A stretch of 64,000 nucleotides of DNA from Buxus sempervirens. Its lineage: Eukaryota > Streptophyta > Magnoliopsida > Buxales > Buxaceae. Location: positions 40,124,602 to 40,188,601 of the forward strand of contig OX387185.1 in the NCBI GenBank assembly GCA_947561395.2. Direction: 5' to 3'. The notes below the pieces were generated by a model. It saw only the letters and a program-made list of their open reading frames with translations, made no database searches and had not been told where the DNA came from. The translations under genes were made by a program, and so were the position numbers. Below are positions 33,275-63,760 of this stretch, piece after piece (position 1 is the first letter of the stretch; every line of letters starts with the position of its first letter).

Positions 33275-34705
33275 GAGAAGGATGAGTTGAGGGTAGAGCT
33301 GTGGCATTCTCTGCACCACTAATTAATGCCAATGTTTTAGCTTGTTTCATGGCAATCTCATCCACAAGGATAGCTTTTCTAGACTTCTTCTTATGCTTTC
33401 TTCGAGATGATGACACTTCCTTTGCTGGAATTTGTTCTTCTTTTTGTGGAATTGAAACTTCTTTCACTAAAGGATCCGATGCCAAGAGCTGAGACCTGTT
33501 CTGACTTGTAGTAGTTACACAATCAGCTTCACAAATTGGTGTCAGGTCTAGCTCCACAAAAACATCAATTGCATTCTGATCTGCTTGTTCAGTAGTACAG
33601 GTGGCATTGAGATTAGGATTATTGAAGGGTTCATTGGGCTCAGTCAAACTTGTAATCATTTGGTTTGCTCCACTACATTCTGCACTGCATGATATAGGTC
33701 TAACAATTGGAGGGGTAGACTCATCAAAGTCTGGACCAATGCACCCCACAGAGGGAGATTCAATGACCTGCTTACCCTTGGTAATAGTGGTCCAAGGTTG
33801 CTCTGGATGTACTGCATGATGGGGAAGCTCCTTACCAATCACCACCGAGGGGTTCAAGCTCACATTGGCTTGAGGATTTACAATTTGATTTGCTGAAAAA
33901 TCATTTTTCTGAGTTTGAGTATTTTCTTCCACAGCCACTTGGATTATCCTTCCAGTTGGAATCCATGCCTTAGCCGGAGCTTGAGGGCATTTGAGATCCG
34001 AGTGCCCAAACAATTTACAATGGGAACATTTGATCGGTTTCCATTCATATTCGACCTCAATTTCATGTATCATTTCCACTTCACCATTTAAATCTGGGAC
34101 ATTCAAGAATACATTCTTTGGGTAGCAGCATTTTGAATCAACCTCAACACAAACTCAAGCAAAATTTAATTTTAATCTTCTTTCTGTAGCATCATCCAAG
34201 TATAGTGGTTTCCCCACTCCACTTGCCAGGAAGCTAAGGCCTGCCGGTGTCCAATACTCCATTGGAACATTGAAAAGTTTAATCCAAATAGGCAATTTTG
34301 ATAATGAGGCCTTCTGCATCTGCATATTTGGTTGCCACTCTTGCAAAACCATAAGCCTTCCAGCAAAGTGCCAAGGAGCTTGGTGAAGAACTTTATCCCT
34401 AGCTTCAGGATTAACAAATCTAAAGATAAAGAAATCTTTCCCTGCAACTAAGACTTGAACACCACCATGCTTGCCCCACATTTTTTCAGCCAAGCTCTTC
34501 ACAACTGCAATTGGTAATTTTTTGTCTAGGAAATGCCCAATCAGGCTTCCCTGCCAGAGTTTAACGCCCTCCTCAGCTACATTCGGAGGTGGAGTGACCA
34601 CAATTCTACCTTCAACAAGGGATGGAGGGTAGTAGTGTAGTTTACATCTTGAAGAAGCATGCTCTCCAAACAACAAAGCCCATGGCTTAGCTCCCTTTAG
34701 GGGAC
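33267..34705 (-). pseudogene. LINE ORF1: DUF4283-type RNA-binding protein, broken
   Basis: The first part carries a DUF4283 domain as seen in plant L1 ORF1 proteins (GSLIGHFLDKKLPIAVVKSL, then FFIFRFVNPEARDKVL, then WIKLFNVPMEYWTPAGLSFL). A single TGA at 34152-34154 interrupts the frame just before VCVEVD. The sequence then continues in frame to a CCHC zinc knuckle (CSHCKLFGHSDLKC, about 34035) and a polar tail that stops at 33267. Usual ORF1s have an arginine before VCVE, so the stop is readily explained by CGA to TGA. The N-terminus is missing: upstream codons belong to flanking DNA. Confidence 0.85.
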
Positions 34706-34717
34706 AAGCTAATTGTT

Positions 34718-35012
34718 GGGATTCTAGAAAGTCCAAAATGGTTCAAGGCATGGGCTTAGGATAATTCTCAATAATTTTAAGGTCAAATTGGGCAGAACAG
34801 AGCCTCTAGTGACATAATTCAGTAAAATGTGGGATGTACTCATTTAGAGTATTTTTAACTGAGGAAAACCTTTTTCACATTTTTTAAAGCCAAAACTGTC
34901 TTAACCGTGAGATGCTCCATGTGACAGCATCTCACTCACACTTCATAGTTTGTTGTAAGAGGAAGTAGCAAACGATTTCAAACCATTAGGTATGGCTGAA
35001 TTTTGGTGTAAG
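34718..35012. other. Spacer between LINE and solo LTR
   Basis: No gene seen. It contains a perfect hairpin at 34907-34935 (GTGAGATGCT, 9-base loop, AGCATCTCAC). Similar sequence occurs near 26700-26769 and a weaker version near 51866-51892. Confidence 0.6.
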
Positions 35013-39889: not shown

Positions 39890-40005
39890 GGCCCTTGTAA
39901 GTCTTCCTTATCTTGGAGGAGACTCTCGGCGACAGGGCGAATCGGGCGATTTGGGCGTTTTGGGTGATTTGGGTTTGTAAGTGTAGGGTCTGCAGATTTG
40001 CGCCA

Positions 40006-41517
40006 ATGGCTATTACCATCCAAGGTGGGTCTTCTTCGCTCCCTCCGGACAAGCCACGATCTTTTGCTGCTGTCGTCTCTGGTTCAGTGTTTGCTGTTGA
40101 AGACATCCAGGTTCCAAGGAAACCGGTTACAAGCTATCATGGATTCCCTGCGGTTGAATTTTCAGATGTTGAAATTAAGAAATCCATCAGCCCCTTTTCT
40201 TTCTCCTTGGTTGCAAAATTTGTTAATGGGAGGCCGTCTGTGGATGTGGTTCGAGAAGCCATTCAAAAAACATGGGCACTCCAAGGCAGCTTCCATGTTG
40301 GAGTTTTGGATAATCGGCATTTACTATTTCGGTTCAGAGAAGAAACAGATTTTATAAAAGCATGGACGAGAGAAAACTTATCGATCAAAGGGTTTCATTT
40401 TCGCCTCTTCCAATGGAACATGCGTTTTGATCCCACTAAAGAGTCTTTGCTGGTGCCAGTGTGGATTTCGTTGCCCAACCTCCCCATTAACTTATTCCCA
40501 GAATCCTTTATCTTTTCTATAGCTGGAGCAGTTGGTAAACCCCTTACTCTTGATGCTCCCACAAAAAACATTTCAAGACCTAGCTTGGCAAGGGTATGTG
40601 TTCTATTGGATTTGCTCAAGGTTCATCCTGATAGAGTGTGGGTTCGTATGGGTTCAGAATATGGAAGATGGCAACGTATAATCTATGAAAAAGTTCCCTC
40701 TTACTGCACCGGTTGTTTCCATCGAGGGCATGATATCTCCTCCTGTCGTGTAGCATCGAAGAAGAAGAACCCAGAAGCTCAGAAACAGCAATACAAACGG
40801 GTAGGAGTTTTTGATTCTTATCCAACTTTAGAGAACTCATTTGAAGTCCTACCTCCTGAGAAAGAAAGTGCTTCTGATCACGGGATAAACAAGGAGTTGA
40901 ACAATTCTCATCGGGTTGTGGAAGACCTGCAGCACCAAGATCAGTTAGGACAAAAGACATTGCAAGAGAATCTGGAAGAGGTTGTACCTTTTGAGAAGAA
41001 TGGATCACAACAGGATTATGATAGTGCCCAAGGCAGTCAGGGCCAAAATATTGATCAATCTCAAGGTGAAGATGAAATTTTAGAAGCTAGCCACATTGAT
41101 TCAGAGGATGGTAATCTTAATCTTTTTAGAAGGAAACATCGAATCCTTTCTAAGTCACACGTTCTCCATCAGATCAATTTAGAACCTAATCGTCCAGCTG
41201 ATATGCAAACTCCCAAGCAATCGGGCCCCACCATCCAAGCTCTCTCATTGGGATCATGCAAAACCGATTCCTTGAAGGATTATTCATCGTTGAATGAAGC
41301 CAAGGAAGCACTCCTACAAGATCAGGCTATTTTAGCAAAAAGAATGGAGTTAACTTTATATAATCTGGAAGGACAGTGGGATCAATCTCAAGGTGAAGTC
41401 TCTAAGTTGGTTTTATCATCTCAGAACACCAAGAAGAAGAGCAACAAATTTCCATCAAGAAGTTCCACAAGGTCAAAGGTAAAGACCTCTTCTAAACTCA
41501 ATCAATTTATTTTTTAA
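40006..41517 (+). CDS. LINE ORF1: DUF4283 / zinc-knuckle RNA-binding protein
   Basis: An intact frame of 503 residues from the first ATG (MAITIQGG). The frame is open further upstream but has no earlier ATG. Residues of about 55-190 form a DUF4283-type domain (LVAKFVNGRPSVDVVREAI, then LLFRFREETDFIKAW, then VPVWISLPNLPINLF). LARVCVLLDL follows, and a CCHC knuckle CTGCFHRGHDISSC near residue 237. The C-terminal half is polar, glutamine- and serine-rich and ends in a basic stretch. Family knowledge: this protein coats LINE RNA. Its stop codon overlaps the ORF2 start (TAATG), suggesting coupled translation. The same arginine-valine-cysteine motif is interrupted by a stop in the other LINE of the window. 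Confidence 0.88.
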   Translation: MAITIQGGSSSLPPDKPRSFAAVVSGSVFAVEDIQVPRKPVTSYHGFPAVEFSDVEIKKSISPFSFSLVAKFVNGRPSVDVVREAIQKTWALQGSFHVGVLDNRHLLFRFREETDFIKAWTRENLSIKGFHFRLFQWNMRFDPTKESLLVPVWISLPNLPINLFPESFIFSIAGAVGKPLTLDAPTKNISRPSLARVCVLLDLLKVHPDRVWVRMGSEYGRWQRIIYEKVPSYCTGCFHRGHDISSCRVASKKKNPEAQKQQYKRVGVFDSYPTLENSFEVLPPEKESASDHGINKELNNSHRVVEDLQHQDQLGQKTLQENLEEVVPFEKNGSQQDYDSAQGSQGQNIDQSQGEDEILEASHIDSEDGNLNLFRRKHRILSKSHVLHQINLEPNRPADMQTPKQSGPTIQALSLGSCKTDSLKDYSSLNEAKEALLQDQAILAKRMELTLYNLEGQWDQSQGEVSKLVLSSQNTKKKSNKFPSRSSTRSKVKTSSKLNQFIF

Positions 41518-44500
41518 TGATTCCTACAATGATATGGAATATAAGAGGAGTGGCTAACCCTGATTCTGTTAACATGCTTAAGTCTCATATTGTTTGTCAC
41601 AAGATTCAATTACTTGCTGTTCTAGAGCCTATGTGTAATGAAGTCAGATGCAAAAAGGTTGCCAGGAGAATCAAAATGAAGAATTATTTTTGCAACCAAG
41701 ATCAAAACAGTAAAATCTGGGTTTTTTGGACTGATTTATTGAGGTTGGACTTCATTGCCGTTTCAGATCAATATGTTACAGCTCTGGTAAGTTCAGGGAA
41801 CAACAGTTCCTTCTCTCCTTATTTAATATCCTTTATTTATGCCAAGTGTGACGTGCTGGACAGAAGACATCTTTGGAATGATTTGCTGGGCTTTTCAAGT
41901 TCTGTGAACTACCCTTGGATCTTAGGAGGGGATTTTAATGCAATTCTTGCCGTGGAAGAGAAACATGGGGGCAGAAGTCCGGACAATAGATCAATGCATG
42001 AATTTCAGGACTTTATACAATGTGCAGGCTTAAAAGACCTTGGGTTCAATGGAGATAAATTCACTTGGTGTAATGAGCAGGTTGGGCAACGTCGTATTTG
42101 GGCTAGGCTGGATAGGTTACTCATAAACCATCAGGGGTTGCATCTTGTTGCTTCAATCAAGGTTCTGCATTTACCTCGGGTATGCTCAGATCACTGCCCT
42201 ATTGTGTTATCAGTGTTGCAGGCTTCAAGGAATCCAGTTTTTTCTACTTTCAAATTTCAGAAGATGTGGTTATCTCACCAAGGGTTTTTGGATGTCGTTA
42301 AGAGTACATGGAATACTAATATGATGGGTTCGGCTTCTCACTTGGTGGTTTTTTCAAGAAAATTAAAGCAATTAAGAGCTGTCCTTAGAAAGTGGAATTG
42401 GGAAGTTTTTGGAGATGTGCATACTCGTATTAAGAATCTTTCTTCAAAAATTTCTGAATTGGAAAATTGTCTTCAGCTTCAATGGAATCAACATAATGCC
42501 GATATCCTTCATCTCAATAAAAAGGAGCTTGCAAACCCAAACATCATTGAGGAAGCTGTTGGTTTTTTCTCTAATTGTTTCTCTTCTAATCATCATCTCT
42601 TAAACAATAGTGTGGAATTCATTCCTAAAATTCTGGATGAAAACACAAATGAGATGCTGGTGGCTCCTCCTTCCTTGGATGAAATTAAACGAGCTGTTTT
42701 TGAGCTTGATCCAGATAGTGCCCCAGGTCCAGATGGCTTCACAGGTTGGTTCTTCCAAAGTTGTTGGGATATTATTGCTGTTGATTTAGAGGCTGCTATT
42801 GTTGAATTCTTTTCTGGAAGTTCTCTTCCTACCTCTTTTACGGCTTCTCATATTGCCCTAATTCCTAAGGTCGCCCAGCCTGGATCTTTTTCAGACTTTC
42901 GTCCGATAAGTCTTTGTAATTTCTCATACAAGATCATTTCCAAGATTCTTGCTTCTAGGCTCTCCTCTATCCTCCCTCAAATCATTAGCAGGGAGCAGAG
43001 CGCTTTTGTTAAAGGGAGATGCATATCTGATAGCATATCATTAGCTCATGAGTTGTGTCAGGATATAAACAGAAAATGCTTGGGGAGTAATATTATCATT
43101 AAGCTTGACATGGCCAAGGCTTTTGACAGAATGGAGTGGGATTTCCTCCTTGAGGTTTGTAGACGATTTGGTTTTTCAGATTCCTGGTGCAATCTTATTA
43201 TTCGGTGTTTAAACAACTGCTGGTTCAGTGTTCTTCTTCAAGGTTCTGCTTGTGGTTTCTTCAAATCTTCTAGAGGGCTTCGTCAAGGAGACCCTCTCTC
43301 TCCTTTGTTATTCATTATTGCTGAAGAGGTCCTTAGTAGAGGATTGACCTCTCTGGTTCAGGATGGCTCTCTGGGTTATTACCATACAGGCAGAATACCT
43401 CTTAAAGTGTCCCATCTGCTCTTTACGGATGATATTCTTATCTTTTCGAATGGTAAGAGATCTTCTCTGGTTAATCTCCTGAATTTTATCAAGTCTTATG
43501 AGGAAGCTTCAGGCCAACAGGTGAATAACTCAAAAAGTTGTTTAATTGCATCTTCTAAAATCTCTCCATCGAGATTGGATATGATTCAGTCTTTGTCTGG
43601 ATTCAGCAAGGTTAGTTTGCCTATCAAATATTTGGGAGTTCCTTTATTTCATGGTCGTGCTTCTTTGCCCATGTTTGCTGAAATCTTAGAAAAGATACAG
43701 AAACGAATCAGTGGTTGGAAATCAAAACTTCTGTCTCATGGGGGGAAAGTTACTTTAATTCAAAGTGTACTCTCAAGCATACCCATCCATTCTCTTTCAG
43801 ATATCCCTTTCCCTAAAGTTGTCTTGAAAAGAATTGAAGCCTGCTTTGCTAATTTCTTTTGGGGAGAAAGCTCCGATCATGGATCCAAAAAGCATTGGTT
43901 AAGATGGGATACAATCGCCCTACCTAAATCTGAAGGTGGCTTGGATATAAAGTCAGTTGCAGACGTTATGAAAAGTCTGCAAATAAAAATGGGATGGAAG
44001 GCCTTGTATGGGGATAGTTTATGGTCAGATTATATGTGGGCTAAGTACTGTGCATCGGGGCAATTCCAAAATCTTCAAGATAGGAGTGGAAGTTCAAAGA
44101 TATGGAAGGCAATTCTGAAGGTTAAAGAGGTCATACTCGATAACACTGTTTGGTCTGTTGAAGAAGGTAATTTAAGCTTTTGGTTTGATCATTGGTCTCA
44201 TCTTGGCAAGCTGGCAGATTATGTTCAAGATGAGGATATACCATACCCAGATTTAAAGGTGATTGACTTTATTAATCCCAATGGCTCATGGAATATTGAC
44301 CTGCTTAATGAAGTTCTTCCTCAAGATGTGAATGCTCAAATCATTGAAATTAATTACCAGCCTTCTCATCTCAAGGACAAACCTCTTTGGAAAGCAGATT
44401 CTTCAGGTAATTTCTCCACTTTCTCAGCTTGGAACATAATCAGAAAACGTGGTAATACCTATCCTTGGAGCAAGAACATTTGGGTTAATTTTATACCGAA

Positions 44501-45518
44501 TAAAATTGCTGTGTTTTTCTGGAAAGTTTTGAAGGGTGCGCTACCTACTGATGATCGGGTTCAAAGTTGTGGAATTCAGATGTGTTCCCAATGCAATTGC
44601 TGCTCAAATTGGAAAATTGAGACTTTGAACCATCTCTTTTCTTTTGGAGGAATTGCTCGTTCAGTTTGGGAGCATTTTGCTAATCGTTTTAAATGCCAAT
44701 TTCATGCTCTTCACGATTTGGCATCTAAGGTTTCTTTCTGGTTTAGCGAGTACTCTAATGATCAGTATGGTTTACTATTCAAATCAATTCCTCTTTTAAT
44801 CTGTTGGGAGATATGGTTATCTAGATGCAAGAGCAGATTTGAAGAAATTCCGATGTCTTCAAGCCAAATCATCAGCAATATCCGTTATTGGCTTCAAGAA
44901 ATTTCATATCTTACCAAGCCGTCCAGAAATTGTAAATCTCTTGGAGCTTTGGTTTTAGAACAGATGCAGTTATTCACTCCATTCATTAGAATTCCTAAAA
45001 CACATTTCGTTCGTTGGTTAAGACAAAGAAATTCCCCTCTAATTTTGAATGTGGATGGAGCTTCAAAAGGAAACCCAGGAACTTCAGGAGGGGGAGGAAT
45101 TATTCGAAACTCTGCAGGTTTGTTTATTGTTGCTTTTTCATCTCATTATGGAATTCAATCAAATCTTATGGCAGAACTTTTTGCTTTAAGGGACGGACTT
45201 CGTATGGCAGATAGTTATGGTTTCCAGCACCTGATTATTGAGTCTGACTCTAAGATTCTTGTTGACATTATAAATGGCGTGGCTTCAGCCCCTTGGAAAT
45301 TTTTACTTTGGTGGAAAGAGATCAAAGGAAGGATTAGCCCTCATAATCGTTTGGTTCAGCATGTTTACAGGGAAGCTAACACTGTAGCTGATGCTCTGGC
45401 TAATGAAGGTTGCGTTCATTCATCAAAGAAGTTTTATGAGTCTCTTAATGATATTTCTTCACATGTTAGAAATTGTTTGTTTCAGGATAGAACTGGTTTG
45501 TATGCCCTTAGGCATTAG
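41517..45518 (+). CDS. LINE ORF2: endonuclease, reverse transcriptase, RNase H
   Basis: An uninterrupted frame of 1,333 residues. An AP-type endonuclease occupies residues of about 1-230, with WNIRG, LAVLEPM, GGDFNAIL and SDHCPIVL holding the expected Asn, Glu, Asp/Asn and Asp/His residues. The reverse transcriptase runs from about 390 (APGPDGF) through IIKLDMAKAFD and GLRQGDPLSPLLF to FTDD near 636; the usual FADD has Ala replaced by Thr, and both catalytic Asp remain. A zf-RVT region lies at about 970-1050. An RNase H domain follows at about 1176-1305 (NVDGASKGNPG, AELFALRDG, ESDSKILV, ANTVADALA), with its acidic residues kept. Between KKELA and NPNIIEEA (about residue 343), roughly 90 residues usual in this family, including the WLKDGDRNTKFFH-type block, are missing in frame. 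Activity is therefore uncertain. Confidence 0.9.
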   Translation: MIPTMIWNIRGVANPDSVNMLKSHIVCHKIQLLAVLEPMCNEVRCKKVARRIKMKNYFCNQDQNSKIWVFWTDLLRLDFIAVSDQYVTALVSSGNNSSFSPYLISFIYAKCDVLDRRHLWNDLLGFSSSVNYPWILGGDFNAILAVEEKHGGRSPDNRSMHEFQDFIQCAGLKDLGFNGDKFTWCNEQVGQRRIWARLDRLLINHQGLHLVASIKVLHLPRVCSDHCPIVLSVLQASRNPVFSTFKFQKMWLSHQGFLDVVKSTWNTNMMGSASHLVVFSRKLKQLRAVLRKWNWEVFGDVHTRIKNLSSKISELENCLQLQWNQHNADILHLNKKELANPNIIEEAVGFFSNCFSSNHHLLNNSVEFIPKILDENTNEMLVAPPSLDEIKRAVFELDPDSAPGPDGFTGWFFQSCWDIIAVDLEAAIVEFFSGSSLPTSFTASHIALIPKVAQPGSFSDFRPISLCNFSYKIISKILASRLSSILPQIISREQSAFVKGRCISDSISLAHELCQDINRKCLGSNIIIKLDMAKAFDRMEWDFLLEVCRRFGFSDSWCNLIIRCLNNCWFSVLLQGSACGFFKSSRGLRQGDPLSPLLFIIAEEVLSRGLTSLVQDGSLGYYHTGRIPLKVSHLLFTDDILIFSNGKRSSLVNLLNFIKSYEEASGQQVNNSKSCLIASSKISPSRLDMIQSLSGFSKVSLPIKYLGVPLFHGRASLPMFAEILEKIQKRISGWKSKLLSHGGKVTLIQSVLSSIPIHSLSDIPFPKVVLKRIEACFANFFWGESSDHGSKKHWLRWDTIALPKSEGGLDIKSVADVMKSLQIKMGWKALYGDSLWSDYMWAKYCASGQFQNLQDRSGSSKIWKAILKVKEVILDNTVWSVEEGNLSFWFDHWSHLGKLADYVQDEDIPYPDLKVIDFINPNGSWNIDLLNEVLPQDVNAQIIEINYQPSHLKDKPLWKADSSGNFSTFSAWNIIRKRGNTYPWSKNIWVNFIPNKIAVFFWKVLKGALPTDDRVQSCGIQMCSQCNCCSNWKIETLNHLFSFGGIARSVWEHFANRFKCQFHALHDLASKVSFWFSEYSNDQYGLLFKSIPLLICWEIWLSRCKSRFEEIPMSSSQIISNIRYWLQEISYLTKPSRNCKSLGALVLEQMQLFTPFIRIPKTHFVRWLRQRNSPLILNVDGASKGNPGTSGGGGIIRNSAGLFIVAFSSHYGIQSNLMAELFALRDGLRMADSYGFQHLIIESDSKILVDIINGVASAPWKFLLWWKEIKGRISPHNRLVQHVYREANTVADALANEGCVHSSKKFYESLNDISSHVRNCLFQDRTGLYALRH

Positions 45519-52229: not shown

Positions 52230-52482
52230 AATTACCAAGAATTAGGTGATTGAATCTAGATTACGATGGTCTCCGCTTGCCAAGGGACTTCAATATACCT
52301 TTAACTCTTTCGATCACCTACGCATCCCTAGCCTTCAACAATAACATTCAGACTACGGTGACTACCCATATTATAAGCTAATTTAAGTCTTTCAAGTAAT
52401 GCAATAAGTTCAACAATATAAATAGACATAGCAGATATTCTTTAGCAAAGGCCAAAATGCGAAGCCCTTTTTCATTCCTCAA
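52230..52482 (-). pseudogene. RNase H-like (RVT_3) relic, C-terminal piece
   Basis: This continues the relic whose N-terminal piece lies at 63455-63760, separated by the Copia insertion. On - it reads RNEKGLRILAFAKEY, then after a frameshift YIVELIALLERLKLAYNMG and LNVIVEG, then after another shift VIERVKGILKSLGKRR. These correspond to the second and third acidic blocks of plant retroelement RNase H domains. Stops and frameshifts show it is dead. Confidence 0.65.
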
Positions 52483-53764
52483 TGAAAAACACAGTTTAGA
52501 CTCTAAAACACCTAGAGGGGGGTGAATAGGTGAAACCGATTGCGGAATAAAATATCAATCAATTAAAAACAGGTTCTTAATTAATTGGCATGCACAAGTC
52601 TGAACACATATCAATTCATCACACACAATTGCAAAATAAGTAAGAGACAACACAAGCAATTTGGTGACGAAGGGAAAACTCTAAGAGAACTCTCAAAGAG
52701 AAAAACCCTCCGGGCTACGAGGTGCCACCTCTGGAAATCACTATAAGAAGAAGACTTACAATAGTGGTTCAGACGACCCAACAATGACTCTGACTCACAA
52801 TGTAAATATCTGAAGAACTCTTCAGATTTGCATCCTTGCAACGATTCAGAACTCTGAATATCTCCTTAGTGAAGTGCCGAACGAACTCGCTCAGCAACAG
52901 TAGGAACTCCCACGAGCAAACTCTTCAACCCGGAACTCCAAGGTAGAAAAGAAAAGAAGAAGACTGGTTTTGATGGCTCAAAGAAGAAGAGAAAAGAGGA
53001 AGAAGGTCTCTCACTCTTGCACACGTTTTAGGGTTCTCAAAAACGTATTGGGTAACCCTCACAATAGGCTAGACACTCCTTAAATAGGTTAGGAGAAAGA
53101 AAGGAACGAAAAGGAAACAAATCAGAAAAGATCGGATTTCTAAAAAAGAAGTTTGTTAACGAACGTTCGAACGCTCAGCGAACGCGGCTCGAACGTTCGA
53201 TAAAACAACTCACTTTTCTTCTTCTCGTTCGAACGACCAGCGAACGTTCAGCGAACGTTACTCTCTGTTTTCTCTGTGGAACCTAAACGGTCGAACGTTC
53301 AACGAACGTGAGGCGAACGCTGCTCTCTGGATTCTCTGTGGAACACCAACGGTCGAACGTTCAGCGAACGTGAGGCGAACGCTGCTCTCGGGATTCTCTG
53401 TGGAACACCAACGGTCGAACGTTCAGCGAACGTGAGGCGAACGCTGCTCTCGGGTTTGTCTGTGGAACACCAACGGTCGAACGTTCAGCGAACGTGAGGC
53501 GAACGCTGCTCTCGGGTTTGTCTGTGGACATCAACGGTCGAACGTTCAGAGAACGAGAGGCGAACGCTGCTCTCTGGATTCTCTGTGGACCCTCAACGGT
53601 CGAACGACCGGCGAACGTTCATCGAACGTTTGATGAATCTTTACCAATATGACTCCGTTCAAGACCCCGTTTGAACCACACAACCTATACCCTATCCCAA
53701 ATACATTGACAACATTAAACGACCTTTTTGACACGGAATTGAAGCCAATAACTTAAACCTTACA
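52483..53764 (-). repeat. 3' LTR of the Sirevirus-like element
   Basis: On + it runs TGAAAAACACAG ... AACCTTACA, i.e. TG..CA on -. It is the same as 62173-63454 in every segment compared. The open frames at 52611-52841 and 53546-53734 are not genes: they recur unchanged in the other LTR. Confidence 0.95.
53287..53640. repeat. Six ~62-bp tandem units in the 3' LTR
   Basis: ACGGTCGAACG starts at 53287, 53349, 53411, 53473, 53534 and 53596. Each unit contains GAACGTTC and a GGCGAACG word and ends with TCTCTGTGGA or TGTCTGTGGA. More GAACGTTCG words precede the array (53160-53260). Confidence 0.92.
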
Positions 53765-53778
53765 AACTCCCCCTTTGG
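53765..53778 (-). other. Polypurine tract of the Sirevirus-like element
   Basis: On - CCAAAGGGGGAGTT abuts the TGTAAGG start of the 3' LTR. This is the plus-strand priming site in Copia elements. The same AGGGGGAG core recurs three more times upstream on -. Confidence 0.8.
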
Positions 53779-54247
53779 CTATTCCGTGACAAAACAAACA
53801 AGGCTTATTCTAATTGTTGTGAACCACCAAGCAACAATTTGAACAAGTACAAAAACAAAAAAAATTGACATGATCTCCCCCTAAATCTATTAACCCCAAA
53901 AATAATCACCTGTACCTGAAACATCAAAAATTGAAACTACCAAGTGAAAAGCAATGATAATAGAACAACTAATAAGAAATTTAATGAGCTCAAAATTTTC
54001 ACAAACAAAATAAATTTCTCATTCAGTTTCTTTGAGCAATATACATTTGGACATTCATGAGCAATTAACCATAATATTCAACACAAAATACATCAACATA
54101 AATTCATGATAACCAACACATAACCATATGAACTTCCACAGAAAATACAACCATCATCCACTCCAAGTTTATACAACCACAAAAAAATTACAGACTTGAC
54201 TACGACACTACTCCCCCTTTTTGTCACCGGAAAACAAAGGGAGCACA

Positions 54248-55399
54248 CTAAGAATGTGATGGCCCAGCACCATCATCCACTCCACTGCCACCACCTCCAC
54301 TCGAACCCGGAGCCGCAGGAGCAGGAGCAGGAGCTTCATCATCCTCTTCTTCCTCCGCATCCTCTTGACGAAAATAACCTTCAAGAGCAGATTCGAGCGT
54401 GCCAAACGAAGTTTGTAACGAAGATTGCTTAAGCTCAAGGCGCTCAAACCGAAGAACCACGTCCTTATGATGCCTCTGCAAATAAGAAAGAATCTCGGAG
54501 TTTTGTTCTCGGAGAGACACAATTTCCTCATGCAAGGAAGAAGGAGGCTGAGCCTCAGGGGGATCATCAGGAGCAGGAGCCCGGGTGGAAGAAAGATGAG
54601 CCCGGCTTTGCTTAAGAGTTGATTCAGAAATAGGATTAGAAGCTTTACACAACTCTAAAGAAGGAAAAGGAATGTTCAAGGCACAAACCAAACGGGCAAT
54701 CAAGCACCCGTAAGGAAGACCATAGGTCTTCTTGGAGTTAAAGAAAACATCCAGGATTTTTGAGCAAATGACAGAGGGTAAATCAATGGTATGATGTTTT
54801 TTCAAGGCATACAAAAACAGGCATTTATCAAACGGGACAGAAGACTTGTGAGCAACAGGAAACAGGTTATGGCTTTGGATACGAAAGATAACAATGGTTT
54901 CGGCCGTAAAAAACTTTACCTGTAAAGCACCACCCCTATACACCCAATTCCCCCTACCATTATGGAACAAGGTATCAACCACTTCATTTTGAAAATCCGG
55001 AGTGGGGGGAGGATAAGGAAACTGAGGATCCGTAACCCTAGGAAGCCCAAACACTGAGGCAATCACCGAGGGTCCAACCCGAAAAGGAGTGCCACGAAGA
55101 AATGTAGAGAATTCAGAATTTTCCAGATCAATATCATGGATGTTGGTGAAAAACTCTCTAACCAACTCAACAGAAGGAAGAACAAAATTCCCAAACATGG
55201 GATCCCAACCCCTATCTTGAAAACAATCTGAGACCTCATCAGGAAGGGTGGAAAACTTCACTTCTCTCTCTATAATAACCGATCTCTCACAAAAAAATTC
55301 CTCAAAATTTTTTGCAGCCCTTTTATCAACAAAAAGGGACTCATCATACCTAGGTTTCTTATTTGAAGTTTTGGTACCCAGTGATTTCTTCCTAGGCAT
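54248..55399 (-). CDS. Extra frame after pol in Sirevirus-like element, 383 residues
   Basis: An intact frame starting MPRKKSLG, between pol and the 3' LTR. Residues of about 35-250 include CERSVIIEREVKF, GWDPMF, LVREFFTNIHD, FLRGTPFRVGPSVIASVFGL and YGLPYGCLIARL. From memory this pattern matches the 'putative plant transposon protein' domain (Transposase_32-like) found in many plant retroelements; that is not verified here. Residues of about 290-350 are heptad-like (SLHEEIVSLREQNSEILSYL ...), a likely coiled coil. The tail is acidic, then Pro/Ala/Gly-rich. There is no signal peptide and no membrane segment, so although it sits where an env-like gene would, it does not look like an envelope protein. 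Expression would need a spliced or internal-start mRNA. The role is unknown. Confidence 0.82.
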   Translation of the reverse strand: MPRKKSLGTKTSNKKPRYDESLFVDKRAAKNFEEFFCERSVIIEREVKFSTLPDEVSDCFQDRGWDPMFGNFVLPSVELVREFFTNIHDIDLENSEFSTFLRGTPFRVGPSVIASVFGLPRVTDPQFPYPPPTPDFQNEVVDTLFHNGRGNWVYRGGALQVKFFTAETIVIFRIQSHNLFPVAHKSSVPFDKCLFLYALKKHHTIDLPSVICSKILDVFFNSKKTYGLPYGCLIARLVCALNIPFPSLELCKASNPISESTLKQSRAHLSSTRAPAPDDPPEAQPPSSLHEEIVSLREQNSEILSYLQRHHKDVVLRFERLELKQSSLQTSFGTLESALEGYFRQEDAEEEEDDEAPAPAPAAPGSSGGGGSGVDDGAGPSHS

Positions 55400-57047
55400 C
55401 TAAGAAGGAATAGAAGCAAGAAGAAAAAAAAAAAAAAATAAAAAAATAAAACAAGCACATGTTAGACAAGAACTGGAGACAAGATGCACTAAAGAAATTA
55501 CATGCTAAAAAAAATGCATGGAACAAACACGGTTGATCAAACCACAGAAAAACAGAGAACAGTCGAGCAACGTTCGACCGTTCGGCGAACGTTGAAGAAT
55601 CGAACCCAGATTTGGGGATTTTGACCAAAATCATCAACTTTAACAAACCAAGCTAATTAAGGACTCGAAATCAACAACAAAACATGAATACAACCTTTTA
55701 AAACTGATTTGAACAACGATAAACCATAAAGCACGAAGAAATCAAAGATGTAAGATGAAAAACCCTAGAAAAACCCTAGACGAAGATGAATAGTGAGAGA
55801 AAACTAAAAAGAATGAACGACAACAAATAACCTTACCTTGGATCACGATTTGAAAGCACGAATCGAAGAGAAATCTCGCTGAAAATCGGAAGCCCTAAAA
55901 TCGCCAGACGTTCGAACGACGAACTTGAAGAACATAAAAACCCTAGGTTTTGTCGCACGCGACCTTTTAAAAAAAAACAGGTTTTTAATTGAACGTTCGA
56001 ACGTTCGGCGAACACGGGGCGAACGTTAAACAAGAAATTTGTTTTTTAAAACCAACGTTCGACACGCGTTCGCAGTACGGGGAGGAAAGACCCAACGTTT
56101 GCTTAACGTTCGATAGACCGTTCGAACGTTCATCAAAAGTTCAGAAAAAATTTCCAGATTTCAGCAAGAAGACTGATTTCTTTTCAACCAAAAACACTTC
56201 AAACATATGTAAAAACTTGCAAGACATACCAACAACTATAAATCAAGTATAAACTCTTGAAAACTCAAATTTTGACCTATTTTGAGAACCATTTTGCTCT
56301 AAAAATCAGATTTGATCAAATTTAACTTCAAAACTCCCAAATAATTACACAACAACTCAACCAAATTTCCAATTGTGTTTGTGTGCATGTGCAAAACCAA
56401 ATACAACAAGTTTTGCCTATATGAGAACTTGGTGAAGAGGAGTTGGCCATTTATCAAGAAATCCAATATTACCCAAGTCTCTCCAAACATTGAAAAGAGC
56501 CCTTGCATGACCTAAGCATCAAGATTTTGAAATTTTCTCCCCCTGTTTCTTACAATTCTTTTTGCACAAAGAGTAGTGTTCCTTAGAATATCTGAGTTTA
56601 CAGTTTATGCCATGGTTATACTCCTTGTGATTTTCTCTCTTTTTGAACTCAATTTTGCTGGGGTTTACATTTCATCCCAGAGTTCTTTTCATATAACTTT
56701 TTCTTTTTAAACAAGAGGGAGAGATCTCTTTGTAAACACAAGATCAAATGCTAGGGTCTTTTCAACTTAAGATAGACAAGAGTAAACTCAGGATTGCCTA
56801 TCCACACAACACCGAAAATAAAAAATAGGCTTCCTCAATTGTATTTGGATGTGTATGTGATATACAAACCACAAATAGAGTTTAGCATGATGATTGTGAG
56901 ATTATTAGAAACTGTTGAAATCACATTTGAGAAATCATTTTTGAAAAGTTTGTAGGTTCTCAAAATATACCCAAAAGATATATATTTTCACAACCTTATA
57001 CTTATCCTATAGTTGACACATGTCAAGACAAGAATACATATAAAAAC

Positions 57048-57083
<36 letters not shown>

Positions 57084-57185
57084 GAAAGAAAAAACAAATA
57101 CAAAAACAAAATACAAAAACACGTAAGCATGCTAAAGAAAAGAAAAAATGCATGAAACACCCTAAAGCATGCTACAAAGTCCTTC
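55400..57185 (-). other. Non-coding spacer between pol and the extra frame
   Basis: No long frame. It holds A-rich runs (55424-55450; 57049-57081), a further purine tract (about 56537) and scattered copies of the LTR words GAACGTTCGAACG and GGCGAACG (55565-55595, 55905-56125). It may include the leader and splice acceptor of an mRNA for the extra frame. Confidence 0.65.
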
Positions 57186-60100
57186 TTAATGAAGAGGACC
57201 AACACCAATAGCTTTCCTAAGAAACTCAAACCTAAGAGCATCTAAAGGTTTGGTAAAGAGGTCAGCTAGTTGATTTTCAGATGGGATGTGTTCAAGAGAT
57301 ATCACATGATCTTCTACCAACTCTCGAATAAAATGATGTCGTATATCAATGTGCTTGGTTCGAGAGTGCTGAACAGGGTTTTTGGAAATATTAATAGCAC
57401 TTGTATTATCACAATACAAGACAATAGTTCCTTGTTCAATCCCATAATCACTCAACATTTGCTTCATCCAAAGCAATTGAGTGCAACCACTCCCAGCGGC
57501 TATATACTCCGCTTCAGCTGTGGACAAGGAAATAGAGTTTTGCTTCTTGCTCATCCATGCCACAAGATTGTTCCCAACATAGAAACAACCTCCAGTTGTG
57601 CTCTTCCTATCATCTGCATTTCCAGCCCAGTCGGCATCAGAATAGCCTGCTAGAATTGCAGAAGTGTCTCTAGAAAACCATATACCATGATCAACAGTAC
57701 CGTTAACATATCGTATGACACGTTTGACGGCAGATAAGTGAGATTCTCTAGGATTTGCTTGGAACCTAGCACACACACCTACACTAAAGGCTATATCAGG
57801 CCTACTAGCTGTAAGATACAAGAGACTACCTATCATGCTTCTATAAAGAGTGTTATCTACACTCTTTCCAGATAAATCAGAATCAAGTTTCAAGGTAGTA
57901 CTCATAGGGGTTCTAGTGTGTTTCTTGCTGTCCAACCCAAATCTTTTCACAAGGTCTTTAGCATATTTAGATTGAGATATGAAAATCCCATCTGTAGATT
58001 GAGAAATCTGAAGACCTAGGAAGAAATTTAACTCACCAACCATACTCATCTCAAATTCTTGTTGCATAGCTTTGGCAAAATTTAAAGCAAGAGAGTCAAT
58101 TGGAGAACCAAAGACAATATCATCCACATAAATTTGAGCAACAGTGAAACTGCTCTTATCTTTTCTAATGAACAAGGTTCTATCAACTCCTCCTCTTGTG
58201 AACTTGTGATCTAAGAGATAAGCAGTAAGTCTCTCATACCAAGCTCTAGGAGCTTGTTTTAACCCATACAAGGCTTTCTTAAGCCTAAACACATGATGTG
58301 GGAACTTTGGATCAACAAACCCCTTGGGTTGTTCAACATATACTTCTTCATTTAGAATCCCATTCAGAAAAGCACTTTTTACATCCATTTGATGCAATTT
58401 AAAACCCAAGTGGCAAGCTACAGCAAGTAAAATTCTTATAGATTCAAGTCTAGCTACAGGGGCAAATGTTTCATCAAAATCAATACCCTCAACTTGAGTA
58501 TAACCTTGTGCAACCAACCTAGCCTTATTTCTCACTACAGTGCCATGTTCATCTGACTTATTCTTGAAAATCCATTTGGTTCCAATAACATTATAATTTT
58601 CAGGTCTAGGAACAAGATACCACACATCATTCCTAATGAATTGATTTAATTCTTCATGCATGGCATTAGTCCAACACTCATCAGTAAGTGCTTCTTCTAC
58701 CTTCTTAGGTTCAAGAGTTGAGACATAAGATGCAAATGACATCTGATTTAGGACTTTCCTACGAAGTCTCATCCCTTCATTTAAATCACCAATTAATAAC
58801 TCTTTGGGATGATTTAACTTTACTCTAGAGGAAGGTTCTTTTGTAGGACCTGAAGTTGAAGAAAGACCCTCTTCAGAAGTTGAAGAAGATGACTCAGAAT
58901 TTTGACTTTCAACAACCAAGTCATTTTCTCCTACTTCCAGACTAGTCTCCCCCTCAACTTGAGACTTATCAACCCCTTCATCCACAACAACATTTATGGA
59001 TTCCATGACAGTATGTGTACGTAAGTTATACACACGGTAAGCCCTGCTATTCTTAGAGTAACCTAGGAAGATTCCTTCATCACTCTTGGCATCAAACTTA
59101 GCCAAATTTTCCCTATCTCTCAAAATAAAGCATTTGCTTCCAAAAACACGAAAGTATTTGACAGTGGGCTTTTTACCATGCCAAATTTCATAAGGAGTCT
59201 CATTACTCCCAGGCCTCAAATACACCCTATTTATCACATGGCAAGCCGTGTTAATGGCTTCTCCCCAGAAATACATGGCCACACCCTTGGCATGTATCAT
59301 GACTCTTGCCATCTCTTGAAGAACCCTGTTTTTCCTCTCTACTACTCCATTTTGCTGTGGAGTAATCGGAGCAGAGAACTCACGATGAATTCCCTCTTTT
59401 ATACAAAAATTTTCAAGGATTGAGTTCTCGAACTCTTTCCCATGGTCACTCCTCATCCTAACAACCTTAGACTCTTTTTCATTTGAGAGTCTTCGACACA
59501 AAGACATAATCAATTCACTTGCTTCAGATTTTTCTCTTAATAGCTCAACCCAAGTAAATCTGGAAAAATCATCTACAATAACCAAAATGTACCTCCTACC
59601 ACCAAGACTTTCAGTCCTAGAAGGACCCATAAGGTCCATATGCAACAATTCAAGAGGTTTGTGGGTTAGACACTCAGTGATCTTTTTGTGACTAGATCTC
59701 GTTTGCTTTCCCAACTGACATGGCCCACACACATTTGGTTCTACTTTGGCAAGCTTAGGAAGGTCTCGAACAAAATCATGTTTTGACAATTCATTCATGT
59801 TTTTAAAGTTCAAGTGACCAAGTCTTTGATGCCACAATTCATGCATATCAACTTTGGAAGAGTTACACACAGCATTAGAATTAGGAATCACACCATAACA
59901 ATTATCCGGAGTTCTTTCTCCTTGAAGCACACACACACCATTTGCATCAAAAACAGAGCACATATGTTTAGCAAATTTAACTTCCATGTTTGAGTCACAC
60001 AATTGACTTATACTAATCAAGTTAGCTTTCAAGCCATCAACAAATAGTACTTCACTCAAAATAGGCATACCAGAGATTTCAATAACACCCTTACCTACAA

Positions 60101-62129
60101 TAGGTGCTTTGCTTCCATCACCAAAAGTAACAGTGCCACAAGAATAATCCTCAAAAGATTTAAACAAAGATTTGTCACCACACATGTGACGAGAGCAAGC
60201 ACTATCAAGATACCACATAAGACTATTTCTAGCCTTCAAAGCAACATGAACTACATGACAAGTTAATTCACTTCTTTTAACCCAGATTTGCTTCGGCTCA
60301 GTGGTTTTCTTGGTCATTGAAGCTAATTGTTGACTTAAGAGCTTTGTCTGATTTGAAAGTTCTTTCACTTGTTTAGACAAATTCTCTTGAGGTTTTCTAG
60401 GTGAGGATCTCCTAGAGTTTTGGTTCAAATCCCAACACTTTGGTCTGATATGTCCAGAAATACCACAATAATGACAAATAGGGATAAAGTTCTGAGATTG
60501 GGAACTCTTGGTTGGAACACCCCTAGGTTTTGACCAATTAGACTTTTGACCACGATTTCTACCTTGGTTTGTCTTTCTCTTGGAAGAATTGGATCTATTC
60601 TTTCCTTTGGTATTCACAACTTGGGTCTTAGAAGATGATGGATTATCATTTGAGACTTCCTGGAATCCTAAACCCCTTTTATCAGTTCCTAATTGACTCA
60701 TCCCTAGCATATTTTCCAAATTTGCTGTACCTGTAGAAAACTTCTGGAATTGAATTTTAGATTTTTCAAGCTCTTCCTTAAGAGACTTATTCTCAGATTC
60801 TAGGGATTCAATCTTCAATTTGTATTCACCTAGACGAGAAGTAGACTCTTCAAATTTTGCTTGAAGATCTTCTTTCTTGTGCTCTACCTCATTTAGCCTT
60901 TTGAGATTGGATTTTAATTGTTTCTTTGCTTTTAAGCACTCCCTAAACAATTTATCATAAGCATCTTGAAGGCTTTCCTCATCATCACCAGACTCATCAT
61001 GAGAACCAATTGCATTCTCACTTGGTGGAAAGTCTTCATAGTTACTAGAGTCACCACTCCCAACAATAGAGGTGAAAGCCATGTAGTTTTGACTTTCCTC
61101 TATTTTGGAGTCCTCACTATCCCTATCAGAAGCACTCTCATCAGAAAGAGTGGCATTCATGGCTTTCCCTTGAAGCTTCTTAAATGTGGGACACTCCGAC
61201 CTAATATGACCAAAACCCTGACACTCATGACATCTGATTTGTTGAAGTTTTTGCAACCTAGAGTCCTTAGGATGTTTGGACTCCCTAGATTCAGATTTGA
61301 TTCTTGGCTTTTGATCTCTACCACTAGAACTCCCCTTGGATTTATACCTCTCATTTTCACTCCTTGGTTTCCTCCTTCTAAACATTTTCCTAAAGTTCTT
61401 TACCAAAAGAGCAATATCTTCATCTCCCATGGATTCCTCACTAGAATCATTATAAGCCTTTTCTTTACTAGATTTGAGAGCTATAGACTTATTTTTCTTA
61501 GTAGGAGGCAGAGTGAGTTCATAGGTTTGAATTGATCCTATGAGATCTTCAACCCTAATACCATTAATATCCTTACTTTCTTCTATAGCAGTCACTTTGG
61601 GTCTATATTTTTCAGGAAGAGACCTAAGGATTTTTCTAACCACTCTATTAGGAGGAATTCTTTCACCAAGATTAAAACTAGAGTTCACTATATCACTTAG
61701 TTTAGCATAGAAGGAATCAAAGGATTCATCCTCTCCCATTTTTAGTTCTTCAAACCTAGTGATAAGCATTTGTAATTTTGAGTTCTTCACAAGGATAGTT
61801 CCCTCATGAGTGGTTTGGAAAATTTCCCAAATTTCTTTGCTGGTTTGACAAGTAGACACCCGTTTGAATTCATCAGCAGAGATTGCACTAAAAAGTGCAT
61901 TGACACCCTTAGAGTTGTAGTTAACATCAATTAACTCTTCTCTAGTATAGCTATCTGGGTCTTTGGGTTTTGTCTCACCATCTATAATCACAGTTGGAGG
62001 ATTCCATCCTCTCTCAACACTTCCCCAAACTTTTTCATCTATAGCCTTCAGATAGGCTCTCATTCTAACTTTCCAGTAGGCATAATTGCTGCCATCAAAG
62101 AAGGGTGGGGCAGTGGAGGACTTGTCCAT
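57186..62129 (-). CDS. Copia Gag-Pol polyprotein (Sirevirus-like)
   Basis: One uninterrupted frame of 1,647 residues. The first ATG is at 62129 ([20 protein letters not shown]); the frame is open upstream through the primer-binding site without an ATG. In order: Gag with a UBN2-type domain (about 10-220); a zinc knuckle [14 protein letters not shown] (about 300); a charged coiled coil (about 383-470), typical of Sirevirus Gag; a second knuckle [14 protein letters not shown] (about 555); an aspartic protease with LDSACSRHM (about 641); an integrase with HQRLGH (about 770) and a D,D-35-E core ([25 protein letters not shown], about 832-925); a reverse transcriptase with YVDDIVFG (about 1337); and RNase H ([17 protein letters not shown] about 1496, then TAEAEYIA and ADLFTKPL). 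All catalytic residues I can check are present. It could be functional. Confidence 0.96.
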
Positions 62130-62158
62130 GACTAACCGAGTCAAGGATCTGGTTACCC

Positions 62159-62171
62159 GCTCCGATACCAA
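62159..62171 (-). other. Primer-binding site, initiator-Met type
   Basis: On - TTGGTATCGGAGC lies one base after the 5' LTR. The usual plant Copia site is TGGTATCAGAGC, complementary to the 3' end of initiator Met tRNA; this copy differs by one A-to-G change. Confidence 0.85.
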
Positions 62172-62767
62172 TTGAAAAACACAGTTTAGACTCTAAAACA
62201 CCTAGAGGGGGGTGAATAGGTGAAACCGATTGCGGAATAAAATATCAATCAATTAAAAACAGGTTCTTAATTAATTGGCATGCACAAGTCTGAACACATA
62301 TCAATTCATCACACACAATTGCAAAATAAGTAAGAGACAACACAAGCAATTTGGTGACGAAGGGAAAACTCTAAGAGAACTCTCAAAGAGAAAAACCCTC
62401 CGGGCTACGAGGTGCCACCTCTGGAAATCACTATAAGAAGAAGACTTACAATAGTGGTTCAGACGACCCAACAATGACTCTGACTCACAATGTAAATATC
62501 TGAAGAACTCTTCAGATTTGCATCCTTGCAACGATTCAGAACTCTGAATATCTCCTTAGTGAAGTGCCGAACGAACTCGCTCAGCAACAGTAGGAACTCC
62601 CACGAGCAAACTCTTCAACCCGGAACTCCAAGGTAGAAAAGAAAAGAAGAAGACTGGTTTTGATGGCTCAAAGAAGAAGAGAAAAGAGGAAGAAGGTCTC
62701 TCACTCTTGCACACGTTTTAGGGTTCTCAAAAACGTATTGGGTAACCCTCACAATAGGCTAGACACT

Positions 62768-62777
62768 CCTTAAATAG
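62768..62777 (-). promoter_or_regulatory. TATA-like box of the 5' LTR
   Basis: On - CTATTTAAGG, about 200 bp downstream of the repeat array. It is the best TATA candidate in the LTR; transcription would start near 62740. Confidence 0.5.
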
Positions 62778-62976
62778 GTTAGGAGAAAGAAAGGAACGAA
62801 AAGGAAACAAATCAGAAAAGATCGGATTTCTAAAAAAGAAGTTTGTTAACGAACGTTCGAACGCTCAGCGAACGCGGCTCGAACGTTCGATAAAACAACT
62901 CACTTTTCTTCTTCTCGTTCGAACGACCAGCGAACGTTCAGCGAACGTTACTCTCTGTTTTCTCTGTGGAACCTAA

Positions 62977-63330
62977 ACGGTCGAACGTTCAACGAACGTG
63001 AGGCGAACGCTGCTCTCTGGATTCTCTGTGGAACACCAACGGTCGAACGTTCAGCGAACGTGAGGCGAACGCTGCTCTCGGGATTCTCTGTGGAACACCA
63101 ACGGTCGAACGTTCAGCGAACGTGAGGCGAACGCTGCTCTCGGGTTTGTCTGTGGAACACCAACGGTCGAACGTTCAGCGAACGTGAGGCGAACGCTGCT
63201 CTCGGGTTTGTCTGTGGACATCAACGGTCGAACGTTCAGAGAACGAGAGGCGAACGCTGCTCTCTGGATTCTCTGTGGACCCTCAACGGTCGAACGACCG
63301 GCGAACGTTCATCGAACGTTTGATGAATCT
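62977..63330. repeat. Six ~62-bp tandem units in the 5' LTR U3
   Basis: The same array as in the 3' LTR, offset 9,690. It lies upstream of the TATA-like box, so it is placed to act as an enhancer or as a CpG-rich silencing target. Confidence 0.92.
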
Positions 63331-63454
63331 TTACCAATATGACTCCGTTCAAGACCCCGTTTGAACCACACAACCTATACCCTATCCCAAATACATTGAC
63401 AACATTAAACGACCTTTTTGACACGGAATTGAAGCCAATAACTTAAACCTTACA

Positions 63455-63760
63455 CTCAAGATGCCTCCTATCACTGCCTGTTGCTCTTCACAGGCTCATC
63501 GAAGTTAAACTTCATCCATCTAAGGCAGTTGCCACTCCATTAATCTTGAATTGTTTTCTCCTCTTTCATCACTCTTCTTGCCATTTGCAAACAAAAAGGG
63601 TATTAGTATTATTTGCTTCCTTATAAAATACAATAATATTCCTTGGTATTGTCTCAATTGCATAATTAGGATGTATTTCAAACATTGACCTCCATATTGC
63701 TCTACATATACAGAGAAATTTTTCCAGTAAGTCTAAATGTTTAGTTGCCACCTCATTAAT
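63455..63760 (-). pseudogene. RNase H-like (RVT_3) relic, N-terminal piece
   Basis: On - an open stretch includes FLCICRAIWRS and FYKEANNTNTLFVCKWQEE. It is followed by WMKFNFDEPVKSN and, after a frameshift, GGILRNEKG, which crosses the Copia target site into 52482. This matches the region before and including the first acidic block of LINE-type RNase H domains. The two pieces were one relic before the insertion. Confidence 0.65.

What the first reader, a model, noticed from the sequence alone, without database searches (positions are those of the whole stretch)
54248..55399. Sirevirus-like element carries an intact non-envelope frame after pol
Seen: an uninterrupted 383-residue frame with its own ATG, between pol and the 3' LTR, with a conserved-looking globular part, a coiled coil and an acidic Pro/Ala/Gly tail but no signal peptide or membrane segment. 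Known: some Sireviruses have an env-like gene here. Inference: this copy instead encodes a soluble protein of the plant transposon-associated domain family, perhaps captured, and kept open in a young element. Its function is not known to me.
Basis: partly seen in the sequence, partly recalled or inferred. Interest (0 to 1): 0.75.

Follow-up and report, generated by a model that had tools for sequence, protein, structure and literature searches.

The report
Sirevirus accessory gene with own intron
A young plant jumping element carries, behind its replication genes, a third gene that natural selection keeps intact across copies, that looks like a soluble, perhaps nuclear protein rather than an envelope, and that appears to have its own promoter and its own small intron.

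Summary
The frame is real: 383 aa, window 54248-55399, minus strand, inside an intact Sirevirus (52483-63454; 1282-bp LTRs identical, 5-bp duplication). It matches Transposase_32 (PF20167, E 4.4e-23) and has a basic N-terminus, heptad stretch, acidic tail and no membrane segment by hydropathy. It is not peculiar to this copy: it sits in the Sirevirus "ENV-like" slot, and 30 of 40 aligned copies, window included, are open. Pooled dN/dS is 0.154 (27 distinct copies), against 0.18 for the pol tail and 1.07 and 2.61 in the wrong frames. Nonsynonymous variants become rarer as variants become more widely shared. New point: the element's top-scoring donor and its best acceptor of 246 bound a 437-nt T-rich leader intron ending at the ATG; donor GT, CTAAC and AG stay conserved while the intron diverges about 20%. 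No intronless copy was found, against 63 matches to the intron-bearing acceptor. Most likely it is a selected accessory gene expressed from an internal promoter as a spliced mRNA. Transcription, splicing, localisation and function are inferred.

The parts
52478..52482 (.). Target-site duplication, 3' side of the element (CTCAA on the + strand)
   Evidence: the same 5 bases on both flanks
52483..53764 (-). 3' LTR, 1282 bp
   Evidence: no mismatch to the 5' LTR over 1282 bases
53767..53774 (-). Terminal polypurine tract AGGGGGAG, first base 10 bp before the 3' LTR, bordered by an inverted repeat
53875..53882 (-). Extra PPT octamer after the accessory gene
54211..54218 (-). Extra PPT octamer after the accessory gene
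54248..55399 (-). Accessory gene, 383 aa, Transposase_32 (PF20167) protein
   Evidence: selection
54671..55216 (-). Transposase_32 core, residues 62-243
   Evidence: E 4.4e-23, profile 2-176 of 177
54365..54529 (-). Coiled-coil-like stretch, residues about 291-345
   Evidence: heptad score; helix in a low-confidence model
54251..54364 (-). Acidic and Pro/Ala/Gly/Ser tail, residues 346-383, pI 4.05
55346..55399 (-). Basic N-terminus MPRKKSLGTKTSNKKPRY, bipartite nuclear-localisation-like (motif recalled)
   Evidence: 7 K/R in the first 20 residues; the N-terminal 61 codons have the lowest dN/dS, 0.097
55400..55836 (-). Predicted 437-nt leader intron (GTAAGG ... CTAAC ... TTCTTAG), 50% T, ending at the base before the ATG
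55837..55938 (-). Predicted 5' UTR exon ending CCAAG at the donor; its 5' end is a guess
   Evidence: sequence; transcription start not shown
55963..55970 (-). TATA-like run (TTAAAAGG), weak, not kept in every copy
55910..56130 (-). CpG-rich cluster of CGTTCG/CGAACG palindromes (11 hexamers) like those of the LTR; 3 more hexamers lie in the intron near 55570-55595
   Evidence: 14 hexamers in the 1786-nt linker before the gene against 0.45 expected; 0 in gag-pol, 0 in the gene, 0 between gene and 3' LTR
56537..56544 (-). PPT octamer before the accessory gene
57186..62129 (-). gag-pol, one frame from the first ATG (gag, zinc knuckles, integrase, copia-type RT RVT_2)
62158..62172 (-). 5' LTR/primer-binding-site junction (ATTGGTATCGGAGC; initiator-Met tRNA type, recalled)
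62173..63454 (-). 5' LTR, 1282 bp, with 62-bp tandem units and palindromes
63455..63459 (.). Target-site duplication, 5' side of the element

Best explanation
The frame is the third gene of a Sirevirus (SIRE lineage, Ty1/copia), in the place usually called ENV-like or eORF-3'F. Shown: it encodes a Transposase_32 protein without a membrane segment (hydropathy), with a basic N-terminus, heptad stretch and acidic tail, and it is under purifying selection of about the strength seen in pol. Strongly suggested: it is a transcription unit of its own, with a CpG-rich palindrome cluster and core promoter about 570 nt upstream, a short 5' UTR, a 437-nt leader intron and translation from the ATG at the splice junction. 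Such an mRNA lacks the primer-binding site and 5' LTR end, so it would make protein without becoming a template for retrotransposition, while the full-length RNA keeps the intron. Inferred: the protein enters the nucleus, oligomerises through the coiled coil, and helps mainly its own element in a nuclear step such as protection from silencing, chromatin tethering or import of the integration complex. I cannot separate these; countering host silencing is my first guess (about 0.25).
For: Family and element: PF20167 E 4.4e-23; Sirevirus PPT, inverted repeat and palindrome layout. Selection: pooled dN/dS 0.157 over 29 distinct sequences, 0.145 over 20 intact ones; 0.154 against pol tail 0.180 and wrong frames 1.07 and 2.61 over 27 distinct copies. 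Nonsynonymous:synonymous variants are 71:41 when carried by 1 of 29 distinct sequences, 15:22 by 2-4, 11:39 by 5 or more, the kind of decline PMC9073684 reports for Sirevirus gag/pol. Intron: top-scoring donor of the 10,972-nt sense strand and rank 1 of 246 YAG acceptors (by pyrimidine content), the latter abutting the ATG; GT in 39 of 39 and AG in 37 of 39 copies; six more distant relatives keep the GT donor (4 GTAAG, 2 GTATG), and in 11 aligned sequences (window, 4 chosen copies, 6 relatives) CTAAC is kept in 11 and AG|ATG in 10; the signals diverge 0.030 against 0.197 for the intron interior, matched by 15 of 5000 random block sets; 62 of 63 genome matches to the acceptor pattern keep AG. 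Promoter: hexamer cluster 14 against 0.45 expected; in the second family a TATA box lies 294-315 nt before the ATG in 28 of 30 loci. No match to the spliced junction. Similar layout in Carya and Morella proteins.
Against: No RNA data: neither a transcription start nor splicing was observed. The TATA-like run of this family is weak and variable. The absence of intronless copies fits 'never spliced' as well. The donor matrix was written from recall. The second family's start is not at a splice acceptor. Nuclear localisation rests on a recalled motif and composition; both structure models are unusable (mean pLDDT 37.8 and 38.2) and no solved structure matches convincingly. dN/dS was pooled over non-independent pairs; the copies are recombinant mosaics. 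The pol comparison rests on 103 codons with 28 variable sites, not concentrated at third positions (6/11/11). 10 of 40 copies are broken.
Confidence: 0.68

Rival explanations
1. Retrovirus-like expression: the ATG-abutting acceptor is used, but with a donor in the LTR leader or gag, giving a spliced subgenomic RNA from the LTR promoter, as reported for BAGY2 and predicted for Athila.
For: The acceptor is strong and conserved; spliced or splice-predicted env-like RNAs are reported for other plant elements (PMC2829016, PMC7264820; sections or passages read).
Against: None of the 15 best-scoring donors lies in the 5' LTR or leader; the first one downstream is a weaker one inside gag (6.7 against 10.3). 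It does not explain why the donor 437 nt upstream keeps its GT in all 38 other copies counted and all 6 relatives, nor the palindrome cluster upstream.
Confidence: 0.15
2. A true envelope-like membrane protein for particle movement between cells.
For: Position and flanking motifs are those of Sirevirus ENV-like genes; the coiled coil is a feature quoted for them (PMC3414828, passages).
Against: No signal peptide or membrane segment by hydropathy (KD19 maximum 1.48), basic N-terminus and acidic tail; Pfam's only match above cut-off is Transposase_32. Three second-family frames checked peak at 1.56. No dedicated membrane predictor was available.
Confidence: 0.05
3. A recently captured host gene carried as a passenger and not yet decayed.
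For: The unit looks gene-like (leader, intron-like stretch, ATG context). Capture by LTR elements is known in general (recalled).
Against: Purifying selection across copies; a 27%-identical version in another family of the genome, followed by PPT octamers in 30 of 30 loci; related proteins in Carya and Morella. Capture, if any, was not recent.
Confidence: 0.07
4. The intron is not real; the gene is translated from an unspliced internal or LTR transcript, and the splice-like motifs are promoter or leader elements kept for other reasons.
For: No copy matching the spliced junction was found and no RNA was available; T-rich leaders are common in plants (recalled).
Against: Donor, branch point and acceptor are jointly conserved; the acceptor and the donor are each the best-scoring of the element.
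Confidence: 0.15

Closest known systems
Sirevirus ENV-like gene / SIRE eORF-3'F (PMC2829016, passages and two sections; PMC3414828 and PMC6317226, passages)
   Same: Position between pol and 3' LTR, sense strand; palindromic repeats before it and PPT octamers after it; coiled coil; PMC6317226 finds such a frame in 74% of SIRE elements.
   Different: No membrane segment by hydropathy; a named domain (PF20167); measured purifying selection; a conserved intron-like leader ending at the ATG. PMC2829016 says no internal promoter could be conclusively identified; PMC6317226 asks whether such frames have any function.
Athila 3' aORF with Transposase_32 (sunflower Athila 14, 487 aa; PMC11728184, passages)
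   Same: Same Pfam domain, same place after pol in sense orientation, predicted nuclear signal.
   Different: Ty3/gypsy element; no intron or selection test for this ORF was seen in the passages.
Grande gene23 (maize Ty3/gypsy; PMC7264820 and PMC11963269 passages; the 2013 paper seen only as a reference title)
   Different: Antisense to gag-pol; another superfamily; no PF20167 mentioned in the passages.
Retand Transposase_28 (PF04195) aORF (PMC11963269, passages)
   Same: Plant transposon-associated domain of unknown role in a 3' accessory frame.
   Different: Antisense; a different Pfam family; no relation tested here.

Membership tests
Sirevirus | Copia-type pol (integrase before RVT_2) with a long gag-pol | tested here: met
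   rve at 837-938, RVT_2 at 1181-1423, E 2.3e-73
Sirevirus | PPT octamer AGGGGGAG 10 bp before the 3' LTR | tested here: met
   octamer at element 9681, LTR at 9691
Sirevirus | Several identical PPT octamers in the linker, mostly after ENV | tested here: met
   four in the linker, 1 before and 3 after the gene; one more inside pol
Sirevirus | Inverted repeat bordering the terminal PPT and reaching into the LTR | tested here: met
   19 of 20 aligned bases, one 3-nt gap
Sirevirus | Palindromic repeated motif in the LTR and, with ENV, in the linker before ENV | tested here: met
   28 hexamers per LTR, 14 in the linker before the gene, 0 after it
Sirevirus | CGG-CCG core of that motif | tested here: not met
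   core is CGTTCG/CGAACG; one CGGTCGTTCGACCG in the LTR. One of the 13 published motifs (Tnd-1) also lacks the core, so it is not a strict requirement
Sirevirus | PolyC-rich integrase signal near the LTR 3' end | tested here: inconclusive
   CACCCCCC at element 1241-1248, 34-41 nt before the LTR end; not compared with the published signal
Sirevirus ENV-like gene | Transmembrane domain | tested here: not met
   KD19 maximum 1.48; hydropathy only
Sirevirus ENV-like gene | Coiled coil | tested here: met
   10 of 500 shuffles reach the heptad score; no dedicated predictor
Sirevirus ENV-like gene | Sequence match to the published eudicot ENV-like core | not testable with these tools
   no SIRE1 or MASiVEdb protein was at hand
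Transposase_32 (PF20167) | Full-length profile match above the curated cut-off | tested here: met
   82.5 bits, cut-off 45, profile 2-176 of 177
Nuclear accessory gene with own promoter (Grande gene23 kind) | Own promoter shown by transcripts | not testable with these tools
   no RNA data
Nuclear accessory gene with own promoter (Grande gene23 kind) | Nuclear localisation | tested here: inconclusive
   basic N-terminus; motif recalled

The most novel reading that the evidence does not exclude
Sirevirus 'envelope-like' genes of the Transposase_32 kind are not envelopes. They are self-contained, intron-bearing nuclear genes that ride inside the retrotransposon. The leader intron and internal promoter separate the protein-making mRNA from the RNA genome, and selection among copies shows that the product mostly serves the copy that made it.
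Probability: 0.35. Interest if true: 0.72.

Novelty: new variant of a known kind. Interest (0 to 1): 0.55.

Why it matters
Whether the extra gene of Sireviruses does anything, and how it is expressed, is called unproven, controversial or open in the passages read of PMC2829016 (2010), PMC3414828 (2012) and PMC6317226 (2019). Here the first question gets a direct answer for one family: selection of about the strength seen in pol. The second gets a concrete hypothesis that one RNA experiment can decide: a defined donor, branch point and acceptor. If right, the word envelope should be dropped for these genes, and they join the Athila and Grande accessory genes as candidate nuclear helpers of plant retrotransposons, which bears on how such elements keep spreading despite silencing.

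Tried and rejected
Chance open frame: rejected (frame-specific selection). Recent capture and envelope: see rivals. Fold: two AlphaFold jobs, alone and with three plant relatives, mean pLDDT 37.8 and 38.2, so no fold search was run. Solved structures by sequence and by profile: nothing convincing. Protein search with the frame alone: no hit at E 0.001; with profiles, the same three plant proteins twice. Viral contigs and prokaryote genome contigs: no relative. Whether Athila-type PF03078 loci overlap PF20167 loci in this genome: not completed. The second family's class as a Sirevirus rests on PPT octamers after the frame in 30 of 30 loci (counted from the first in-frame stop, which is early in broken copies) and on a gag-pol match inside the 1.5-kb flank in only 2 of 30 loci, one of which (L060) may be rearranged. 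Age comparison between regions was spoiled by recombination. The distances of the second family's TATA box were measured from a fixed position; one search remeasured them from each ATG.

Rows dropped: L031 from splice-site counts (its match begins downstream of the ATG); L028 and L031 from the pol-tail/frame comparison (upstream part does not align). Of 18 divergent copies only 4 (L039, L041, L044, L047) were put in the 11-sequence leader alignment; six relatives were fetched out of the 107 protein matches. Only 40 of 222, 150 of 2050 and 107 of 2090 first-look candidates were scored by the tool, so copy numbers are lower bounds and biased to the best matches. The 63 acceptor matches were chosen by likeness to the pattern.

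Full report
What is there. The finding's interval holds a 383-codon frame on the minus strand. It belongs to an LTR element at 52483-63454, also on the minus strand: two 1282-bp LTRs with no mismatch, a 5-bp target duplication, and gag-pol in one frame with copia-type domains. Published hallmarks of Sireviruses (PMC2829016, passages and two sections read) were checked. The terminal octamer AGGGGGAG starts exactly 10 bp before the 3' LTR; the linker has four such octamers, one before and three after the accessory frame, and one more lies inside pol. The octamer is bordered by an inverted repeat. CGTTCG/CGAACG palindromes fill the LTR (28 hexamers) and recur in the linker only before the frame: 14 against 0.45 expected, none in gag-pol, in the frame or between frame and 3' LTR, and 5 in the 52,482 window bases left of the element. 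One published feature is not met: the palindrome core is not CGG-CCG. The element is a Sirevirus, and the frame occupies its ENV-like slot.

What the protein is. Pfam gives one family above its cut-off, Transposase_32 (PF20167), over nearly the whole profile. The first 20 residues hold 7 K/R, residues around 291-345 have heptad periodicity (10 of 500 shuffles as high), and the tail is acidic. Hydropathy shows no signal peptide or membrane span. The frame alone found no relative among public proteins; a profile made with a second family of the genome found three plant proteins, one of Carya illinoinensis and two of Morella rubra. By eye they repeat the layout: basic start, domain, helix-prone stretch, acidic end. 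The host plant is not named, so one of the two genera could be its own. No structure could be modelled with confidence.

It is under selection. The host genome (676 Mb, 247 contigs) gave 40 scored close copies of 222 candidates and 107 scored protein matches of 2090 candidates at 83-100% identity. Of the 40 copies aligned, window included, 30 are open from ATG to stop. Pooled dN/dS is 0.157 over 29 distinct sequences. Over 27 distinct copies it is 0.154 for the frame, 0.180 for the last 103 pol codons (28 variable sites, so rough), and 1.07 and 2.61 when the frame is read in the two wrong registers. The N-terminal 61 codons are the most constrained (0.097), the core intermediate (0.150), the C-terminal part the least (0.207). 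Nonsynonymous to synonymous variants are 71:41 when carried by one of the 29 distinct sequences, 15:22 when carried by two to four and 11:39 when carried by five or more, with 6 stop variants set aside. A published study of Sirevirus gag/pol (PMC9073684, passages) reports the same kind of decline, an end value near 0.15 by a somewhat different count, and argues that it arises only if gene products preferentially help their own copy; the word envelope does not occur in its main text. By that reasoning this protein acts mostly in cis, which is an inference.

The gene has an intron-like leader. The base before the ATG ends a long pyrimidine tract and TTCTTAG. Scored without regard to the gene, this is the best of 246 YAG acceptors in the element by pyrimidine content, and the best donor of the whole sense strand, CCAAG|GTAAGG, lies 437 nt upstream (donor weights written from recall). 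The stretch between is 50% T and has a CTAAC branch-point match 62 nt from its end. Among the window and 38 copies (one truncated copy left out) GT is kept in 39 of 39 and AG in 37 of 39. Six more distant relatives (85-90% protein identity) keep the GT donor, four as GTAAG and two as GTATG; in an alignment of 11 sequences CTAAC is kept in 11 and AG|ATG in 10. These signals diverge by 0.030 while the intron interior diverges by 0.197; 15 of 5000 random block sets were as conserved. Intron haplotypes about 20% apart, brought onto the same linker by recombination, still keep the signals in the copies examined, apart from the two acceptor losses noted. A genome search for the spliced junction with up to 3 mismatches found nothing, while the unspliced acceptor gave 63 matches, 62 with AG at its place. 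So the spliced RNA, if made, has left no detected copy.

A candidate internal promoter. Upstream of the donor lie a CpG-rich leader, a weak TATA-like run that is not in every copy, and the palindrome cluster. The second family (PF20167; 150 of 2050 candidates scored, all above the cut-off; 30 loci examined; 27-28% identity to the window frame in the five aligned) has a clearer layout: a TATA box 294-315 nt before its ATG in 28 of 30 loci, CACC (19), CATC (8) or TACC (3) before the ATG, and a donor-like CAGGTAAA in 26 of 30 loci (CAAGTAAA in 2, neither in 2). PPT octamers follow that frame in 30 of 30 loci and none precede it within the flank. Its ATG is not at a splice acceptor, so the ATG-abutting acceptor is special to the first family. 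PMC2829016 (section read) states that an internal promoter had been hypothesised but not conclusively identified. In the listings of the paper searches made and the passages read I saw no report of a leader intron in a Sirevirus accessory gene; many subscription papers are not in that library.

How it most likely works. An internal promoter makes a short mRNA; the leader intron is removed, which places the ATG next to the exon; the protein goes to the nucleus and, as an oligomer, helps its own element. The first two steps are suggested by sequence and conservation; the last two are inference from composition and selection. The nearest functional parallels are Grande gene23, a nuclear accessory protein with its own promoter (PMC7264820, PMC11963269 passages), and the Transposase_32 accessory frame of Athila (PMC11728184 passages).

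Verdict. The intron-bearing internal gene is the part worth a specialist's attention.

Noticed in passing
L040, L042, L044, L045 (genome copies), leader and intron against linker: Copies are mosaics: L040 and L045 have nearly the same leader and intron (0.013 apart) but differ 0.21-0.22 from L042/L044, whose linker they share at 0.012-0.020. The leader-intron block moves between lineages.
   Followed up: partly
L039-L047: Synonymous divergence from the window copy is 0.12-0.17 in the accessory gene but 0.015-0.06 in the last 103 pol codons of the same elements, as if gene and pol had different ages.
   Followed up: partly
window 39913-45518: Two adjacent open frames of a non-LTR (LINE-type) element, 534 aa (DUF4283) and 1333 aa (RVT_1, zf-RVT, RNase H), both uninterrupted.
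   Followed up: partly
window 29929-34736, minus strand: Separate frames that look like pieces of another LINE-type element; the one scanned (29929-31488) has RVT_1 and zf-RVT.
   Followed up: partly
window 23826-24773, minus strand: Frame resembling an exon of a KANADI-type transcription factor (recalled likeness; Pfam gave no match).
   Followed up: partly
L060: A second-family accessory frame with a gag-like match directly upstream (42% identity), suggesting a deleted or rearranged element.
   Followed up: no
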